From a virus, in the IMG/VR virus record IMGVR_UViG_3300020473_000021, positions 1-64,000 of that record: a DNA stretch of 64,000 nucleotides. The stretch is one strand, 5' to 3'. Positions 45,436-59,679 of the stretch are shown here, piece after piece (the stretch's first letter is position 1; every line of letters begins with the position of its first letter). The notes under the pieces were generated by a model that did no database searches, was not told the origin of the DNA, and was given only the letters and a program-made list of their open reading frames with translations. A program made the position numbers and the translations under genes.

Positions 45436-46242
45436 TTAATCGCGACGGAAGCGCTCGTAAGCCTCTTCCATCTTTTCATCATAACGGTTTTCTTCATAAG
45501 CTGGACCGTTGTAAGCATATGCAAACGATGCCCAGTCTAACTCACGTAACGCATCAAGTAAACGATTGTCTGCCTCGATGAACCTAACAAAAGATTCTAG
45601 CTGCTTATGCTCACCTTCACACACTGAATCGTAGTAGTGTTGTGGGCTTTCATAACCTAATCGTTTCCAATGGAATCCCATGATTTGGAAACGACCATAA
45701 GAAGCCGATTCGATCGCCGCAGCGGGATTGAGAGACATTGCTTTGTCTAAGCGATGGTTTTCCTCAACTCCACCCGAATAACCGCCCCTGTCGGCGTTGA
45801 CGATGTCTGAGGCATATTTCTGACCAAGTTCTGCTGCTAACGTAAGATCATAATGCATGAGACGCTTAAGCATCCAGTGACGCTCAAATAACACTTTGAT
45901 TGTTCCGTCGCTATGGAAACCACCGCCAGACGATTCAACCTCACTGACTGCTCTGAGTGCCTCTACCTCGACGTCGAGGTATGCGGCTGCATCTTCGATA
46001 TCTTTTTCACGCAATGCCCAGTCTGGTTGTTTCTGATCATCCAGTTGCATTTCAATGAGAGTACGCTCACCAACAAGACCATCAACGACCAAACCTTCAG
46101 AACGTTGAAAAGCTTTTACAGCCCGTTCCGTACCAGGACCAAAGTCCCCATCAATAATGCCTTGATAGAAACCTCGTTCCTTCAACACTTCCTGTAGTTG
46201 TTCTACATCAGGTCCCGAAGAACCTAAACGCAATAAGTCCAT
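45436..46242 (-). CDS. Endolysin: peptidoglycan-binding domain plus N-acetylmuramidase
   Basis: Residues 3-63 (LRLGSSGPDVEQLQEVLKER...DGDFGPGTERAVKAFQ) are a PG_binding_1 domain. Residues about 90-268 match the phage N-acetylmuramidase family (DUF3380): AVSEVESSGGGF with the catalytic Glu, KVLFERHWM, SYGRFQIMGFHW and FAYAYNGPAY. It would cut the glycan strands of the host wall at lysis. The N-terminal binding domain and C-terminal catalytic domain order is typical of jumbo-phage endolysins. No signal peptide, so export would need a holin. AGGGGG precedes the ATG. It is the last gene of the minus-strand tail cluster. Confidence 0.9.
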   Translation of the reverse strand: MDLLRLGSSGPDVEQLQEVLKERGFYQGIIDGDFGPGTERAVKAFQRSEGLVVDGLVGERTLIEMQLDDQKQPDWALREKDIEDAAAYLDVEVEALRAVSEVESSGGGFHSDGTIKVLFERHWMLKRLMHYDLTLAAELGQKYASDIVNADRGGYSGGVEENHRLDKAMSLNPAAAIESASYGRFQIMGFHWKRLGYESPQHYYDSVCEGEHKQLESFVRFIEADNRLLDALRELDWASFAYAYNGPAYEENRYDEKMEEAYERFRRD

Positions 46243-46252
46243 TGTAACCCCC

Positions 46253-46699
46253 TTAATGTCGTATATCCGGGTTATTAGACAACAGCGCCAGCCACAACCG
46301 GACTGGTGTGATCAAACCAGGATCGAACCGCAATGCCATGTTCCCTGCCCTCAACGCACCAGAGATGAACTCCGCTGGTGTAGCATGGTTACGATTATAG
46401 TTTTCAGTTGTAGGTAAACGAAACAGGTGTAACCACCCATAGCGTAGGTGTGTTCTATCTCTTATGTAATCGACGCAACGTCGCTGATCTGGGACATCAA
46501 CATTGATCTCTACATGTTTACCTAATAATTCATAAAAGATGTTCCGATGATGGATACGGACACCTTCATATTTACTTATTTCGCAGACAAACCCGTCCTT
46601 GAAATCTATTGCTACACGGTCCCATGGAGAAACCTGCATGATCCGACTAATGATCGATCCAGACCCCCCGCCACGAGAGAAAATGATGCTGGTAGACAT
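46253..46699 (-). CDS. NlpC/P60-related (YiiX-like) protein, catalytic residues apparently lost, 148 aa
   Basis: The pattern SRGGGSGSIISRIMQVSPWDRVAI, then a strand, CEISKYEGVRIH, and later ATPAEFISGALRAG follows YiiX/YebB-type permuted papain folds (gdii.Sr..I...s.SHvai..., Ea..GV, tCsEfv..al). At the expected His there is Asp (WDRVAI) and at the expected Cys-Ser there is Pro-Ala (TPAEF). If the match is right, this is an inactive wall-binding or structural relative. It precedes the endolysin by ten bases, which fits a virion or wall-related job. Confidence 0.4.
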   Translation of the reverse strand: MSTSIIFSRGGGSGSIISRIMQVSPWDRVAIDFKDGFVCEISKYEGVRIHHRNIFYELLGKHVEINVDVPDQRRCVDYIRDRTHLRYGWLHLFRLPTTENYNRNHATPAEFISGALRAGNMALRFDPGLITPVRLWLALLSNNPDIRH

Positions 46700-46834: not shown

Positions 46835-47278
46835 TTAATACTCAGTCACCCTTGAGGTGGTCCACTCAGTTGTCCAAGTGGTCGTATAAGGAACAGCTAT
46901 TTCAGTCAAACGTGAGGTTTGAAATGACGTCACTGTCGTTATATAACCAGATGTAACATGTGAAGTAGTCCAACTTGTGGTAACCTGTCGACTCACTGTG
47001 GTAGAACGAGACGTACCACGACTTGTATTTCGTGATGCCGTCCATGTGGTAGTATAATTGGTAGTCCTACTCACTGACGTCGAACGAGTCTTTGTTGTCG
47101 ATTTAGTCGTACTCCGACTTACGCTCCAGCTGGTGGTCCACGATGTCGTCCAACTTGACGTATATGACGTCGAACGAGACTCAGTACTATACAAAGTAAC
47201 CCAATCTCGAGTGTTGAAGTTAGTCGTATGACTACCCGTTATGGTATTATAACTAGTAGTCCATGAAGTGGTTGGCAT
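46835..47278 (-). CDS. Ser/Thr/Trp tetrad-repeat protein, 147 aa
   Basis: Almost the whole 147-residue chain is built of short repeats of the type T-[ST]-x-x with W, Y or R at fixed places (SWTTSWTTSWSVSRSTTKST is typical). The same repeats fill residues about 700-860 of the adjacent fibre. It has no signal, no Hint domain and no poly-Gly. Such periodic chains may wind into beta-helical or triple-stranded fibres. AGGAGT precedes the ATG, 11 bases after the fibre stop, so it is co-translated. A tail-tip or host-contact role is inferred from neighbours. Confidence 0.65.
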   Translation of the reverse strand: MPTTSWTTSYNTITGSHTTNFNTRDWVTLYSTESRSTSYTSSWTTSWTTSWSVSRSTTKSTTKTRSTSVSRTTNYTTTWTASRNTSRGTSRSTTVSRQVTTSWTTSHVTSGYITTVTSFQTSRLTEIAVPYTTTWTTEWTTSRVTEY

Positions 47279-47289
47279 AGTGACTCCTA

Positions 47290-50200
47290 CTATTTCTTAA
47301 CTACGACTCCGCCACCGGGTATGTTGTGAACCAACAACCCACCAGCAAAGTAAGTATCGTATTCTTCAACATCAATACTGACAGTATCGAATTCACCAGT
47401 AACATACACCATGGTTTCGATGAGTACTTCTTCGAGTTCTTCGTTAAGCATGATATCGCCAACTTCAAGATCTCGAACATCAAACCATGACCAACCATTG
47501 CCTTTATTGGCAAGTACTTCGTGTTGTTTAGTAATGGTCAACGTGTCATTAATTAAATAACCCGCACGGAACCAATCCCTTTCAACACTTCTAACAGTAA
47601 CATCGACGTATGTAGGTTTCGATAGGCTTTGTGTTGTCCAATCTCTCCAACCATCGATACTCTCATCGATCATACCTTCAATGTTAACACCACGTAGAAC
47701 GTCACCGACTTTAACATCTCCAGCTAAGATGGTTTCGCCAGATGCCAACCAAAGTTTGGTATCGAGCGATATACAACCACCACCACCACCACCGCCGGAA
47801 TAAGTATTCCTGCTGGTCGTTTTAGAGGTAGAACGAACGGTGTCGGTTGTACGATATGAATAAGTATACTGCATGTAAGAGGATACATATTGAGTATTGC
47901 GTGATCCTTGCTTACTCGTCGTTCGACTGGTCGATTTACTCGTTGACCAACTCGTGGTATAGCTTGTAGATGCGCTATAATTGGTATTAACACTAAAGAA
48001 CGTCGTTTTACTGGTCGTACGACTTGCCGTCCATGAAGTGGTAAAGCTTGTCGTCCAATTAGTATTCCAAACGCTATCTTTAAACGTTTGTCTACTGGTG
48101 GTGTAACTTGTGTTACGCTCCATATAGACTTGCGTGTTACGACTGGTATTGAATCGAGTTGTATATGAACTCATGCGCTCAGTCGTACGAGAGGTCTGTT
48201 TAGATGTTGTCCATTGAGTCACACGACGACGCATAACTTGCAGCTGATAACGATCTGACCAACTACTCCATCCTGCACCAGAACTTTGGTAGCGAACTTG
48301 AAGTTGTAATCCCACATCACTACCTGGTCGGAACCCATTGTTATATGGATTGTGTTTCGTTAGGTCTGATGTAGATTGAACATCGTAAACTACCGTACCA
48401 GATGCATCGCGGATACGCCACTGAGTCCTGATGTGGTCTTCATCGCCATCATACAGACTACCCACCATAGTAAACTCACGAGTGATGCGACCGTCAGCTT
48501 CGCGACCACTAGCCGTTACCGCCGGTTTAGCAATGCGCATGGTATCGATAATGTAAGTCTCAGACCAAGGACTGTCGGTTACGCGATAACCTGCATGTTT
48601 AACGCGAGCATATAGTCGCGTATCGCTTGGCATACCCTTAACGGCTTTACTCGTTAATTCAGTCTTAGACAATTGATCAATCAACCGGTTAGAGAAGTTA
48701 GCGTCAGTAGCTACTTGCCAAACCGAATGACGATGACTGTCGAACGAATCATACGGTCTAACACCAAACGGCGTTGTCTTTATATCGAAATCGATAGGAA
48801 CTCGAGGCATATTACCGGTAACCGCAGGCCACGTAATGGTTGGCTGTTCAACACCACTAAACACAATGTGTAACGTGACCGTTCTAGCTTTACCATCTTT
48901 ATATACCGTAAAGGGTTGATTACCTAAAGGTGAGTTCTTAACAATCTGACCTGTGAAACGTTCACCGACAACACTAATGTCACCTACAGGAGTTTCTACA
49001 GCATAAGAACTCCCCACGTGGTAGTTGGTTATCATCAAGTCGATGTCTTCAGCTTGATAATAACGATTCTCACCATCAAGGTTTATACCACCCATCTCAC
49101 CCGCAGCTTCAAAGGCAGCATCCATCTCGGCTAACGAGACATTATCAACATTACCTAATCCCAACTGTTGTTTGGTGACTTTATGTGGGTTGTTGAAGTT
49201 ACCAGTGTGTGATGATAGCGCATCACCGACAAGGTTATCGATACTCACCTTTAACGTATATGGCGTTAAGTAGTGTGAATCACTCAGACCCTGACTTGCT
49301 ATCGATTCGCTAGCTAATCCATAGTTAACTACTTGACCTAGATTAACTTGCGCTTTAGTAACCTCATGTGGATTTTCTTTATCGGCGATATGCTGATCAA
49401 CCAACACACCACCTTGCTCAGATATGGCAAAGCGCATACCCAACGGATGAATATACGTAAAGTCGTTCTCACCCGTAATAGTTAATGCATTAGATGCCAT
49501 CGGATAATTGTTTAGTTGACCTAAACCCACTTGAGCTTTAGTGACTTGGTGTGGATTGGTATAATCTTCCAAGTGTTGAGTATAATCAGGAACCCACTGC
49601 TCTCCAATCAACCAATGCATTCTGGCCGGAGTTACAAACTTATTTGTGACACCCGACTCATCTGCCATGTCGGAGTTAGTCGCTTCAGCAAAGTTATCAA
49701 CTTCACTCAAACCAACTTGTATCTTAGTGACATCGTGAGGGTCATTATTATCATTAGCGTGATTGGCTAAGTTTTCCAATACCTGATCGAAGTAATCGTT
49801 CAACAAATCCAAACGGTGTTGGAGCATGGCGAATATTTCATCGTGACTCGCTCCATCACCCACAACAAGTGCGGTATGGATCTTCTTCATCAGGTTGACG
49901 AGGAATTCCCAACCATAGATATCCACAATATCAGTCAAGTGACTTTCAGGTGGTAAGAATTCTGGACGACCTAATATACGACCCCATTGAACTTCACGCT
50001 CGTTGAGTTGTAGATCTTCCATTGCGTCGATGATGGCCGGTGCAATAGAAGAGTAATCGCCACCGACACTTTGATATGTCAAACGGATGTTGTTTGATAC
50101 AGACTCATCGGTGATAACGATCCCGGCATAAACGGCTTTATTACTCCGCTCAGTTGGCTCAGTAAAATAAAGAGCTGGCCGATATTGATCTTTATTTAAC

Positions 50201-50373
50201 GGCTGATTATTATCGATATCGTAGATGTTAACAGAGTCAAGATAGAAAGCCCCACCATGGGGCGCAAGGAATCGCTCCTTGTCCCCTAATAATGTTCTTT
50301 GCTCATCACTCACTAAATTAAGTGGTGATTGACCCGTTAGATCTAAGGGATATCTTTGAACACTTACGTCCAT
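47290..50373 (-). CDS. Tail fibre with Ser/Thr repeats and C-terminal Hint domain, 1027 aa
   Basis: Residues 1-170 share an N-terminal module with the fibres at 51425 and 56941 (YPLDLTGQSPLNLV, HGGAFYLDS, LNEREVQWGRILGRPEFLPP, DIYGWEF). Four NPHxVTKxQVGLG repeats follow (about 210-420), then fibronectin-like strands (about 460-700), a Thr/Ser/Arg/Trp tetrad-repeat region (about 705-858) and a GGGGGGG linker. From Cys867 a complete Hint domain begins CISLDTKLWL, has TITKQHEVLA as block B, and ends YFAGGLLVHN at 1017, with ten residues after. The domain should self-cleave. The fibre probably contacts the host. AAGGG precedes the ATG. Confidence 0.8.
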   Translation of the reverse strand: MDVSVQRYPLDLTGQSPLNLVSDEQRTLLGDKERFLAPHGGAFYLDSVNIYDIDNNQPLNKDQYRPALYFTEPTERSNKAVYAGIVITDESVSNNIRLTYQSVGGDYSSIAPAIIDAMEDLQLNEREVQWGRILGRPEFLPPESHLTDIVDIYGWEFLVNLMKKIHTALVVGDGASHDEIFAMLQHRLDLLNDYFDQVLENLANHANDNNDPHDVTKIQVGLSEVDNFAEATNSDMADESGVTNKFVTPARMHWLIGEQWVPDYTQHLEDYTNPHQVTKAQVGLGQLNNYPMASNALTITGENDFTYIHPLGMRFAISEQGGVLVDQHIADKENPHEVTKAQVNLGQVVNYGLASESIASQGLSDSHYLTPYTLKVSIDNLVGDALSSHTGNFNNPHKVTKQQLGLGNVDNVSLAEMDAAFEAAGEMGGINLDGENRYYQAEDIDLMITNYHVGSSYAVETPVGDISVVGERFTGQIVKNSPLGNQPFTVYKDGKARTVTLHIVFSGVEQPTITWPAVTGNMPRVPIDFDIKTTPFGVRPYDSFDSHRHSVWQVATDANFSNRLIDQLSKTELTSKAVKGMPSDTRLYARVKHAGYRVTDSPWSETYIIDTMRIAKPAVTASGREADGRITREFTMVGSLYDGDEDHIRTQWRIRDASGTVVYDVQSTSDLTKHNPYNNGFRPGSDVGLQLQVRYQSSGAGWSSWSDRYQLQVMRRRVTQWTTSKQTSRTTERMSSYTTRFNTSRNTQVYMERNTSYTTSRQTFKDSVWNTNWTTSFTTSWTASRTTSKTTFFSVNTNYSASTSYTTSWSTSKSTSRTTSKQGSRNTQYVSSYMQYTYSYRTTDTVRSTSKTTSRNTYSGGGGGGGCISLDTKLWLASGETILAGDVKVGDVLRGVNIEGMIDESIDGWRDWTTQSLSKPTYVDVTVRSVERDWFRAGYLINDTLTITKQHEVLANKGNGWSWFDVRDLEVGDIMLNEELEEVLIETMVYVTGEFDTVSIDVEEYDTYFAGGLLVHNIPGGGVVVKK
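47323..47775 (-). other. Hint autoprocessing domain coding region
   Basis: It codes residues 867-1017 of the fibre: Cys1 after poly-Gly, block A (CISLDTKLWL..GDVKVGDVL), block B (TITKQHEVLA with the T-x-x-H His), and block F/G (VSIDVEEYDTYFAGGLLVHN). The residue after the terminal Asn is Ile, not Cys, Ser or Thr, so protein splicing is unlikely; cleavage or thioester chemistry is more likely. Confidence 0.8.
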
Positions 50374-50398: not shown

Positions 50399-51334
50399 TT
50401 ACTTAAACGGTGTCTTCAACCAGTCCTTCAATGTGTATTCACTGACCGATAGACGTTGGTTGATATGCATGCGATACGGTTCTCGCAAAGCCAACACCGC
50501 TTCCTTATAGCGCTTGATACGCTCGATGATTTCTTCGTCTTCCATGGTAGGATGTAAGAAACCTGAACACTCATGCATCATTATATTTGTGATGCGTTGG
50601 GCGTCATTATCATCGTGTTCGATAACAGAACAATGGCTATGATAAGTCAGTAACCAATCGGTATCTAACCGCGTTAAATCCACGAACTTCTTACCTTTGA
50701 GTCTGGCTAAGAAACTGAACTCAGACGATTGTAAGGTAGCGATCTCTTCAGCATTATTAAACATACCGTGACCACTGAACTTCCTATCAATCTCAATGAT
50801 ACGATCATAGCCGCAAAAGTTAGCGATATCACGAATAGAATCCCGATTTGTAACGGGGTGTGGTTTAATCACCCATTCAGGATCTTTAAGAAGCTCAATC
50901 AGCTTACTCTGGTCAATAGCTTGAAATAGGTTGCTACCTGGTAACATGATGACCTTCTTGAACTTAGGTGCTTGCTCACCAGGTGCCATCTCATATTTGT
51001 CATCAACGAATGAATGTGGAAACTCAAGCTCCGCATCCTCATCTTTTATTTTTTGTGCTAACTGCCAATTGATCTCTGCTGATGCAGTACCAATTTGAAT
51101 ACCACCTAAGACATCATAATAGTTTAATGTTTTAAAGAAAGGTGGTTCAATCGTGATGCAGTCTGTACCCAATGGGAAATCCAAATGTTGGTCGATGAGA
51201 TCTTCGATTCGATGTAACGAAGAAAGTTTCTTATTACGTTTGTTCTCAGGACCAATGCGATCTTTGTTATCGCCATCTTTGTGGAGATGAAGGCGCGTCG
51301 GTGCCTCCATGAATATACCCTTAGAGTCTGGCAT
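50399..51334 (-). CDS. Putative GT-B-type glycosyl- or glycerophosphotransferase, 311 aa
   Basis: The central part reads KKVIMLPGSNLFQAID, EWVIKPHPVTNRDSIRDIAN, FSGHGMFNNAEEIATLQSSE, FSFLARLKGKKFVDLTRL. The order V-x-K-P-H-P, then an acidic/Gly loop, then SSEF..A..GKKxV is that of KpsC/KpsS-type or CDP-glycerol transferase GT-B folds, where the His and Ser-Ser bind the donor. The N-terminal 100 residues are different. It lies between two tail-fibre genes on the same strand. A role in sugar or polyol decoration of the fibre or host surface is a guess. AGGAAAT precedes the ATG. Confidence 0.4.
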   Translation of the reverse strand: MPDSKGIFMEAPTRLHLHKDGDNKDRIGPENKRNKKLSSLHRIEDLIDQHLDFPLGTDCITIEPPFFKTLNYYDVLGGIQIGTASAEINWQLAQKIKDEDAELEFPHSFVDDKYEMAPGEQAPKFKKVIMLPGSNLFQAIDQSKLIELLKDPEWVIKPHPVTNRDSIRDIANFCGYDRIIEIDRKFSGHGMFNNAEEIATLQSSEFSFLARLKGKKFVDLTRLDTDWLLTYHSHCSVIEHDDNDAQRITNIMMHECSGFLHPTMEDEEIIERIKRYKEAVLALREPYRMHINQRLSVSEYTLKDWLKTPFK

Positions 51335-56940: not shown

Positions 56941-59679
56941 TTAACGTTTAGAGAAGTATGTCTCACCTTTCGGCCCGACAAACATCCAACCTAAGTTAGA
57001 TACCACCGCTCGCTTATAACCGATTACATCGGTATCAAAGTCATACGCAAACCAAGTTTCACCTTTGTTGGTGCTGCGGAATATCTGATCGCCGTCTGAG
57101 ACAACGAGGAATAGGCTATCGATTTCATCTGAACGACCTAAAGTAGGATTGAACTCAATGTCCAAAATACTCCAAGTATCAAATGCGAAATCATAGTTAG
57201 CCGTTTCACCGTTAGCATCTTTGAAAAAGACGTTATTGATATCCATGATATCAACAAACGTCATATCGCTTGAGATGCCATTGCTACGACCAGAAATGAT
57301 CTCATCAATACCCTGGCCAGGCTGGAATATAAACGGACCATTGTTGGTTGCTAAGAAAACCATGCCTTTATCAAATCGAGAGTAATCTCGAATCTCACTG
57401 ATTTCGGCATTAGTTTCTTCAGTCCAAGTCACACCCGCATCACCACTGTGGAAAATTGAATCGTTCGTGATGATAACGAAGTTGTTACTTGAGAACTGAC
57501 CTGCGCCATTAATGGTAAGTTTACTAGACAACCCAGTAGGCGTAACATCGTTCCAGTTAGTTCCACCGTTCGATGTACGGAATACTTGTTTGTTAACCGT
57601 AACCACAACCCAAGCATCACCCGTAACGCCTAAGGCTAAGATATCGTCGGTTGTAGGACTATTTAACGAGCTCCAGCTAGAGCCATTAAATCGAGCAATG
57701 CGTCCGCCAACACCCGCAACGATAAATGTACCGTCAGGAGCCGCCTGAAGGGCGTCTATGGATAGATTATAGCTCTCACCTTGGTCTGGATCACCAATAA
57801 AGATACCGTAAGAATATTTCTGTTGGATATCGATTAGGTGTTTACCATCGAGACGCCAGTTAAGATCTTCAAATGACGTAGTCACGCTCTCAGAGAAGTT
57901 CCGCTCATCTTCTTTGATGGTTTCAATCTCAGGCATGACGATTTGATCAATCTGGACTTTTGTCAAGTAAGGTGTGCTATACATATTCTCAACGTTCTGC
58001 TTGGCCTGTTCAGCAGTTGCTACCGACCAGTTGGCAACGTTGCCCAACCCGACTTGAGACTTAGTCACTTGGTGTGGGTTATCAGTCCGCGCTACGTGTT
58101 CCTGTATAGGAGGTAATGCAATCTGATCAACCGTTGCACGTACACCAGCTGGCGTTGCGTACATCTCTTCACTTTCACCCGTCACAGTCGCTGCAACACT
58201 CGCTACGCTATAGTTAGCAACCTGACCAAGACCAACGTCTGCTTTTGTCGTACCACGAGCACGCAATAAAGCATAGTTACCATCTTGTTGTGCATATCGA
58301 GCATCGTAGTCACCCCTTGAGTAGTTTTCTACTTTACTCAAGCCAATCTGATCTTTAGTCACATTGTGTGGGTTGTTCTGATTCTCTTTATGGTTATCAA
58401 TCGCAGCAATAGCAACGTAGTTGATCGCCTCAGCAGTTGCTTCTGGTGTCATAAACTTGTTGTTGGCAACACCATCACGAGCGTCTTGAGCTGTCGCTGT
58501 ATTATAGTTATCGACATTTCCTAACCCAACTTGTCCTTTCGTTACGTTGTGAGGATTGTCCGTGTTGGAATAGTGAGACAAAGCTAATTGTTTAACTTCA
58601 GTATCGATGGCAGCGAATACGCCCGCAGGGGTAGCAAACAAGGATTGGGATGTACCCTCTCTATGTTCTGTGATAGTTGCTGCTTTATAGTTAGGTACAT
58701 TACCTAACCCAACCTGACCCTTGGTCACGTTGTGAGGGTTATTGGATGCACCCACGTGATCTACAACGTCAGCACCAATACGGTTTTCAACGGCCGCTGC
58801 TACACCTTTTGGTGTAACAAACAATGTTTCTGATGTACCGTCTAACGTTTCACCCACAGTTGCCGTTTCGAAGTTATCGACTTTTCCAAGCCCCACCTGA
58901 CCTTTAGTAACGCCATGTGGGTTATCTTTGGCAGCAATGTGATCATCCACTTTGTTTCCAACTTGCACTTTAATTGCTTCAGCAACAACAAGTGGAGTAG
59001 TAAAGCGAACATTAGATTCACCAGCCTGACCCTCTTCAACGGAAGCGGTGGGATAGTTATCCACACTACCAAGTCCGACTTGGGTTTTTGTGACTTCGTG
59101 TGGATTATCGGTTTTAAGTGCGTGAGCAGCTGCTGCACCACCATCCAATTCACCATTAGCGATCGAATCTTTAATGGCTTGTAAGACATCAACTAAATCT
59201 GATGCACCTACTAAGTCTACCAGATCCCACTCGTGATCAATGACTGGGAATTTTTCCGGTAATTGTACAACCTGCTCCCAAGTTGTAATACGTGGGTTAT
59301 TAACCACGTTTGAAAGTAGCTCTGCCGCCTTGGATTCATCAATAATCCATTTACCGCCGATCGTTTGGTATTCAAGCTCTAATGTACCCGATATATCATC
59401 GTTGTAGATAGAGATGGCACCATACACAGGTTTAGCAGTGGCTTTCGAGGCAGAGTTAAATTGATATGATAGAACATAGTCTTCCCCTTTGATAAGTTCC
59501 TTACCAGAGGGATAGTGGACAATCTTCAACCCATCTTCAAAGAACGGTCCAGAGAACGGAACAATGAAGTAGTAATCCAGATAATCTGGAGGGCTAACGA
59601 TATGTCTTTCATTTTTGACCAAGTTCTCAGATTTCCGACCCGTTGGATCAAACGGATAGGTGTAAGATACCTCTGTCAT
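56941..59679 (-). CDS. Tail fibre with beta-propeller-like (BNR) C-terminus, 912 aa
   Basis: The first 160 residues are the shared fibre module (YPFDPTGRKSENLV, SGPFFEDGL, LSYQFN, LELEYQTIGG). Six full NPHxVTKxQVGLG repeats plus one shortened copy (TTKADVGLGQVANY) run from about 190 to 590. The C-terminal 300 residues carry Asp-box elements (VFRTSNGGTNWNDV, IFHSGDAGVTWTEE, IFRSTNKGETWFAY) as in sialidase-like propellers, so it may bind or cleave surface glycans; no sialidase active-site set is visible. AAGGA precedes the ATG. It is the largest repeat array of the cluster and is divergent from the gene at 59788. Confidence 0.75.
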   Translation of the reverse strand: MTEVSYTYPFDPTGRKSENLVKNERHIVSPPDYLDYYFIVPFSGPFFEDGLKIVHYPSGKELIKGEDYVLSYQFNSASKATAKPVYGAISIYNDDISGTLELEYQTIGGKWIIDESKAAELLSNVVNNPRITTWEQVVQLPEKFPVIDHEWDLVDLVGASDLVDVLQAIKDSIANGELDGGAAAAHALKTDNPHEVTKTQVGLGSVDNYPTASVEEGQAGESNVRFTTPLVVAEAIKVQVGNKVDDHIAAKDNPHGVTKGQVGLGKVDNFETATVGETLDGTSETLFVTPKGVAAAVENRIGADVVDHVGASNNPHNVTKGQVGLGNVPNYKAATITEHREGTSQSLFATPAGVFAAIDTEVKQLALSHYSNTDNPHNVTKGQVGLGNVDNYNTATAQDARDGVANNKFMTPEATAEAINYVAIAAIDNHKENQNNPHNVTKDQIGLSKVENYSRGDYDARYAQQDGNYALLRARGTTKADVGLGQVANYSVASVAATVTGESEEMYATPAGVRATVDQIALPPIQEHVARTDNPHQVTKSQVGLGNVANWSVATAEQAKQNVENMYSTPYLTKVQIDQIVMPEIETIKEDERNFSESVTTSFEDLNWRLDGKHLIDIQQKYSYGIFIGDPDQGESYNLSIDALQAAPDGTFIVAGVGGRIARFNGSSWSSLNSPTTDDILALGVTGDAWVVVTVNKQVFRTSNGGTNWNDVTPTGLSSKLTINGAGQFSSNNFVIITNDSIFHSGDAGVTWTEETNAEISEIRDYSRFDKGMVFLATNNGPFIFQPGQGIDEIISGRSNGISSDMTFVDIMDINNVFFKDANGETANYDFAFDTWSILDIEFNPTLGRSDEIDSLFLVVSDGDQIFRSTNKGETWFAYDFDTDVIGYKRAVVSNLGWMFVGPKGETYFSKR

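What the first reader, a model, noticed from the sequence alone, without database searches (positions are those of the whole stretch)
47290..50373. Self-processing Hint domain at the tip of a tail fibre
A full Hint domain with Cys1, T-x-x-H and terminal His-Asn sits at the C-terminal end, after poly-Gly, of a Ser/Thr-repeat fibre. With Ile after the Asn and only ten residues left, splicing is improbable; cleavage at the Gly-Cys bond would leave a fibre with an activated C-terminus that could be trimmed or linked to another molecule. Fibre tips that attach covalently, or diversify by swapping ends, would be new biology.
Basis: partly seen in the sequence, partly recalled or inferred. Interest (0 to 1): 0.75.

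Follow-up and report, generated by a model that had tools for sequence, protein, structure and literature searches.

The report
Self-processing domain capping phage tail fibre
A giant-phage tail fibre ends in an intact intein-like protein-cutting domain, and the same cap, with its catalytic residues kept, sits on fibre-like proteins of several other giant-phage lineages, so these phages probably process their fibre tips chemically, although nobody has yet tested it.

Summary
The 1027-aa ORF (47290-50373, minus strand) of a phiKZ-like jumbo phage ends in TSW repeats, Gly7, a 151-residue Hint domain (Cys867, T948-x-x-H951, H1016-N1017) and ten residues. AlphaFold models it well (pLDDT 85). The nearest solved folds are bacterial intein-like (BIL) domains; the best is Tetrahymena BIL2, reported to make isopeptide bonds. 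A second Hint-capped protein (63% identical domain) lies 80 kb away; each is followed by a small TSW-repeat gene. Relatives cap collagen-like fibre proteins of "hairy" jumbo phages (Erwinia, Dickeya, Yersinia, NCTB) and lie inside a structural protein of marine T4-like contigs. In 36 Hints only eight columns are invariant; all five catalytic residues are among them. dN/dS is about 0.09. Dickeya JA11/JA29 have the same protein ending where the Hint would start, so the module is optional. Best reading: a type-A-BIL-like, self-cleaving cap. Whether the activated C-terminus is hydrolysed, joined to the 10-residue tail or linked to another protein is unknown; "splicing improbable" is too strong, because type A BILs can splice without a +1 nucleophile. 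Covalent attachment and end-swapping are not shown. I found no paper describing such caps.

The parts
47290..50373 (-). Hint-capped tail fibre gene, 1027 aa
49570..50373 (-). N-terminal phiKZ-type fibre domain (residues 1-268), phrog_2163 'virion structural protein'
   Evidence: E 9.8e-101; tblastn to many phiKZ-like phages
49123..49773 (-). four (N/D)NPHxVTKxQVGLGxVxN repeats (residues 201-417)
   Evidence: sequence; tail PHROGs
47797..48219 (-). TSW region (residues 719-859): four-residue xT/S repeat with Trp/Arg/Lys
   Evidence: autocorrelation peaks at 4, 8, 12
47776..47796 (-). Gly7 linker (residues 860-866), N-side of the predicted cleavage bond
47323..47775 (-). Hint domain (residues 867-1017): C867, T948-x-x-H951, H1016-N1017; no endonuclease insert
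47293..47322 (-). ten-residue C-terminal tail IPGGGVVVKK
47308..47358 (-). 51-bp tract identical to the second Hint copy (62% identity elsewhere)
46835..47278 (-). 147-aa TSW-repeat protein, 11 bp downstream, own GGAG ribosome-binding site; possible partner of the capped fibre
   Evidence: the second Hint gene has a 187-aa counterpart

Best explanation
The domain is a working autoprocessing module that resembles type A bacterial intein-like (BIL) domains, carried as an optional C-terminal cap on a tail-fibre protein. After folding, Cys867 attacks the Gly866 carbonyl (helped by T948/H951) to form a thioester, and Asn1017 cyclises next to His1016. The main outcome is release of the cap, leaving a fibre that ends in poly-Gly; a minor outcome could be joining to the ten-residue tail. 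The cap most likely serves assembly: it is present on the precursor and removed on maturation. Shown here: the domain, its fold (predicted), the conserved catalytic residues, purifying selection, recurrence on unrelated fibre-like proteins, and Hint-less orthologues in viable phages. Inferred: that the reaction happens, when it happens, and what the release is for.
For: Eight invariant columns in 36 Hints that are 24-62% identical to this one include all five catalytic residues (C1, T82, H85, H150, N151). Median dN/dS is 0.09 for Alexandravirus Hints against 0.11 for the fibre part. Fold nearest to BIL domains. C-terminal placement with a 7-12-residue tail after the HN, never zero, in every capped relative. 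The same protein without the cap in Dickeya JA11/JA29 stops at ARNPK, at the cap boundary; a Hint-less paralogous fibre of 903 aa in the same genome; the NCTB gp132 relative in Alexandraviruses also lacks the cap (read by eye). Type A BILs mostly cleave (PMC4031507).
Against: No activity data. Gly at -1 is not conserved (Val in the second copy, Leu in marine relatives, Gln in Afa-NA1). Tail sequences are conserved inside Alexandraviruses, which a discarded peptide would not need, though part of that tail doubles as the ribosome-binding site of the next gene. A free-standing homologue in NCTB and in G001 has lost Cys1 and the block-B His, so the fold can be kept without the first step.
Confidence: 0.6

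Rival explanations
1. Ligation: the Gly866 thioester is attacked by an amine of another virion protein, for example the N-terminus or a lysine of the small TSW protein encoded next door, so the fibre shaft is completed by a covalent bond.
For: The closest solved fold, Tetrahymena BIL2, is reported to join its upstream ubiquitin-like domain to a lysine (PMC8616854). Both Hint genes in this genome are followed within 11 bp by a separate TSW gene. Length fits: TSW of the capped fibre plus the small protein is 295 aa, against about 292 in the single-gene paralogue. The motif FQTS near the end of the paralogue occurs in both small proteins and in neither capped fibre.
Against: The colinearity score is only modestly above tetrad-shuffled controls (500 against 442 +/- 15, and the best of 200 shuffles reached 502) and other TSW stretches score higher. 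Capped proteins of NCTB and Alexandraviruses have no TSW neighbour. The two subunits could assemble without a covalent bond.
Confidence: 0.15
2. Splicing: the Hint is excised and the ten-residue tail is joined to the poly-Gly end.
For: Type A BILs can splice without a +1 nucleophile (PMC4031507). Alexandraviruses have Thr at +1 and an invariant Gly at -1, with a conserved tail. In marine relatives an Ig/Fn3-like domain follows the Hint and would be lost if only cleavage occurred.
Against: Ile at +1 here; cleavage dominates in tested type A BILs. Hint-less orthologues lack the tail altogether. Tail conservation is partly due to an overlapping ribosome-binding site and, between the two copies here, to a recombination tract.
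Confidence: 0.12
3. The Hint is an inert structural or receptor-binding tip that uses the fold only.
For: The fold can lose Cys1 and the block-B His in the free-standing NCTB gp135 type. C-terminal ends of fibres often bind receptors (general knowledge).
Against: All five catalytic residues are among the few invariant columns in 36 capped or internal relatives.
Confidence: 0.08
4. A decayed selfish mini-intein that drifted into the 3' ends of structural genes.
For: Intein relatives in phage terminases are found by the same kind of search; no endonuclease is present.
Against: It is at gene ends with variable flanks, not inside conserved active sites; strong purifying selection; Hint-less homologues do not show a clean splice site but simply end.
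Confidence: 0.05

Closest known systems
Type A bacterial intein-like (BIL) domain, e.g. Clostridium thermocellum BIL (PDB 2lwy)
   Same: Fold (TM 0.82 by target length, rmsd 2.3), N-terminal Cys, TxxH, C-terminal HN, no endonuclease, no +1 nucleophile
   Different: Sits at the C-terminus of a phage structural fibre with a ten-residue tail; activity untested
BIL2 of the Tetrahymena BUBL1 polyubiquitin locus (PDB 6y75, 6tmm)
   Same: Best fold match (E 8.5e-10)
   Different: Flanked by ubiquitin-like domains and reported to transfer one of them to lysine (PMC8616854); no such partner shown here
Phage NCTB 'large intein domain protein' gp132 and gp136; Alexandravirus virion structural protein (phrog_38766)
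   Same: Homologous Hint caps (36-45% and about 25-33% identity) on collagen-like or other fibre-locus proteins
   Different: Different fibre bodies; Alexandraviruses have Thr at +1
Tailspike intramolecular chaperone autocleavage (ICA) domains
   Same: A C-terminal self-removed assembly domain of phage fibres: same logic if the best explanation is right
   Different: Unrelated fold, no Hint chemistry (compared from general knowledge; the ICA domain is named in the abstract of PMC8326128)
Pretoxin Hint (PT-HINT, PF07591)
   Same: Weak profile similarity (best E 5e-7 among members)
   Different: No toxin domain after it; only ten residues

Membership tests
Hint (hedgehog/intein) fold superfamily | Hint fold with N- and C-terminal junctions at one active site | tested here: met
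   AF2 pLDDT 85.4 and 55 PDB matches at E<=0.001; all 50 listed are inteins, BIL, hedgehog or Vint; active-site distances in the model were not measured
Type A BIL domain | N-terminal Cys or Ser and block-B TxxH | tested here: met
   C867, T948-x-x-H951; invariant in 36 Hints
Type A BIL domain | C-terminal His-Asn | tested here: met
   H1016-N1017; invariant
Type A BIL domain | no Cys/Ser/Thr at +1 | tested here: met
   Ile at +1 here; not met in Alexandravirus relatives, which have Thr
Type A BIL domain | no homing endonuclease domain | tested here: met
   151 residues, no insert
Type A BIL domain | autocleavage or splicing activity | not testable with these tools
   needs expression of the fibre tip
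Class 1 intein | +1 Cys/Ser/Thr nucleophile | tested here: not met
   Ile at +1
Class 1 intein | inserted in a conserved site, with intein-free alleles equal to the spliced product | tested here: not met
   at the gene end; Hint-less orthologues of the Alexandravirus protein end at the boundary and lack the tail
Hedgehog Hog domain | sterol-recognition region after the Hint | tested here: not met
   only ten residues follow
Polymorphic toxin PT-HINT | C-terminal toxin domain | tested here: not met
   ten residues follow; PT-HINT score below cut-off
Tailspike ICA chaperone | ICA fold and its autoprotease residues | tested here: not met
   fold is Hint; no ICA family among Pfam matches

The most novel reading that the evidence does not exclude
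The fibre is made as two gene products: the Hint activates the poly-Gly end of the shaft and passes it to an amine of the neighbouring TSW-repeat protein, so that a covalent, exchangeable distal half is ligated on during virion assembly.
Probability: 0.12. Interest if true: 0.88.

Novelty: new variant of a known kind. Interest (0 to 1): 0.6.

Why it matters
Known self-processing in phage fibres is by tailspike chaperone domains. Intein-type chemistry at fibre ends, recurring in several jumbo-phage lineages including 'hairy' phages whose hair proteins are still unidentified (PMC6143709), would give a new way to mature or cross-link virion appendages. It can be tested directly, and would supply natural C-terminal thioester tags on rod-like proteins.

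Tried and rejected
Reading the C-tail conservation of Alexandraviruses as proof of splicing: rejected, because GCGGAGAAA (AEK) is the likely ribosome-binding site of the overlapping next gene. Reading IPGGG shared by the two copies here as selection: rejected, because it lies in a 51-bp identical DNA tract. Colinearity of capped TSW plus small TSW with the 903-aa paralogue: suggestive only. Stop-codon readthrough into the small TSW gene: a second in-frame stop follows at once and the gene is in another frame. AF2 of the TSW protein: pLDDT 33, useless. Scan of genomes of 84,980 bacterial and archaeal species with the Hint alignment: no relative found. Literature: no paper on Hint caps of phage fibres in the held library; the Y3 paper that may hold virion proteomics is not held. 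Hint-less homologues of the marine protein: none among nine found.

Full report
Observation. The ORF at 47290-50373 (minus strand) encodes 1027 aa. Residues 1-268 match phrog_2163, and several tail PHROGs cover the NPHxVTKxQVGLG repeats up to about residue 420; tblastn finds the N-terminal 400 residues in phiKZ-like phages of Erwinia, Pseudomonas, Serratia and others, and another window ORF of 713 aa matches a PHROG for a major head protein, so I read this as a phiKZ-like jumbo phage. Residues 719-859 are a four-residue xT/S repeat rich in Trp, Arg and Lys ('TSW'), then Gly7, then C867 ... T948-x-x-H951 ... H1016-N1017 and IPGGGVVVKK. Cys867 is the only cysteine in the protein, although low Cys content is common in these fibres (the 912-aa fibre at 56941-59679 has none).

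Identity of the domain. Single-sequence Pfam matches are weak (PT-HINT E 0.086 for the whole protein, 0.006 for the domain alone). A seven-sequence profile finds PDB 2lwy, a bacterial intein-like domain, at E 2.2e-9, and the Tetrahymena BUBL1 BIL2 domain at 2.8e-6. AF2 on 25 homologues gives pLDDT 85.4, pTM 0.82. Foldseek puts BUBL1 BIL2 first (E 8.5e-10) and 2lwy among the closest (rmsd 2.3, TM 0.82 by target); all 50 listed hits are inteins, BIL, hedgehog or Vint domains.

Family. The same 133,567-bp genome record holds a second Hint-capped protein at 124319-128233 (domain at 127748-128227, 63% identity) with an unrelated N-terminus (phrog_11065). Phage NCTB has two caps (gp136, gp132) and a free-standing pseudo-Hint (gp135); a 199,927-bp IMG/VR contig repeats this arrangement. 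Alexandraviruses of Erwinia, Dickeya AD1, Yersinia fHe-Yen9-02 and Alcaligenes Afa-NA1 carry the cap on a collagen-like virion protein next to two collagen-like tail-fibre genes. AD1 and Y3 are described as 'hairy' myoviruses whose hair proteins are unknown (PMC6143709). In marine contigs with T4-like sheath and tube genes (my reading of the sequences) the Hint is internal, between a unique N-terminal domain and an Ig/Fn3-like domain, with Lys at +1. Structure search of viral models also lists Hint domains in fibronectin- and collagen-containing proteins of uncultured Caudovirales.

Evidence for chemistry. In 36 Hints (24-62% identical to this one) only eight columns are invariant and these include C1, T82, H85, H150 and N151; if columns were equally likely, five given positions would all fall there with P about 9e-8, a figure that ignores shared ancestry. 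Median dN/dS of Alexandravirus Hints is 0.09, against 0.11 for the fibre part, using pairs with dS below 1.2. Capped members keep 7-12 residues after HN; +1 is Ile, Val, Ala, Met, Pro or Thr, never Cys or Ser. -1 is Gly in this fibre, in NCTB and in all Alexandraviruses, but Val, Leu, Thr or Gln elsewhere.

Natural Hint-less forms. Dickeya JA11 and JA29 have the orthologous collagen-like protein (about 49% identity) at the same place in the gene order; it ends ...ARNPK, at the point where the cap begins in Alexandraviruses, and has no tail. In this genome a 903-aa paralogue (128897-131608) aligns with the Hint fibre up to residue 857 and has no cap. The Alexandravirus homologue of NCTB gp132 also lacks it (by eye). 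The cap is therefore an optional module, and fibre ends without Hint and tail are functional, as removal of the cap would predict.

Fate of the activated end. Type A BILs lack a +1 nucleophile, mostly cleave, but can splice by attack of the freed amine on the thioester (PMC4031507). Tetrahymena BIL2 is reported to make isopeptide bonds to lysine (PMC8616854). So cleavage, splicing to the ten-residue tail and transfer to another protein are all chemically open. Conserved tails do not decide: in Alexandraviruses AEK overlaps the likely ribosome-binding site of the next gene, and in this genome the shared IPGGG lies in a 51-bp identical tract in copies otherwise 62% identical (about 5e-9 such tracts expected under independent sites), which points to recombination. 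Both Hint genes here are followed at 11 bp by a small TSW gene with its own ribosome-binding site. The small proteins share the end motif FQTS with the Hint-less 903-aa fibre, whereas the capped fibres lack it, and capped TSW plus small protein has about the length of the uncapped TSW region. That suggests a fibre divided over two genes with the Hint at the division, but alignment scores do not prove it.

Verdict. Hint cap: established by sequence and prediction. Autoprocessing: likely, not shown. Ligation or end-swapping: possible, weakly supported. I found no description of such caps in the open papers searched, although single records are annotated as 'intein domain protein'. I class it as a new variant of a known kind.

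Noticed in passing
L003:2744-3205 (NCTB gp135) and L065 (155-aa ORF): Free-standing pseudo-Hint protein without Cys1 and block-B His but with HN kept, conserved in two phages directly after the Hint-capped collagen-like gene.
   Followed up: partly
window 46835-47278, 47797-48219; G000 127196-127642, 128245-128805, 130736-131602: A four-residue xTS(W/R/K) repeat in five proteins of this genome; no match in cultured phages by tblastn, weak match to phrog_30374, fold not predicted.
   Followed up: partly
window 47308-47358: 51-bp tract identical between two Hint genes 80 kb apart, at the Hint 3' end and start of the tail: probably recent recombination.
   Followed up: yes
L010-L020, L051-L059: Marine T4-like contigs with an internal Hint in a structural-type protein upstream of the tail sheath, L|C ... 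HN|KGGN, no +1 nucleophile; a natural test of splicing without nucleophile.
   Followed up: partly
window 50399-51334: 311-aa protein of unknown function (phrog_26179) placed between two fibre genes; marine contigs also have a 331-aa protein before the Hint gene, but the two are not convincingly similar (E 0.01).
   Followed up: partly
window 45436-46699: N-acetylmuramidase with peptidoglycan-binding domain and a 148-aa protein without family match directly downstream of the small TSW gene.
   Followed up: no
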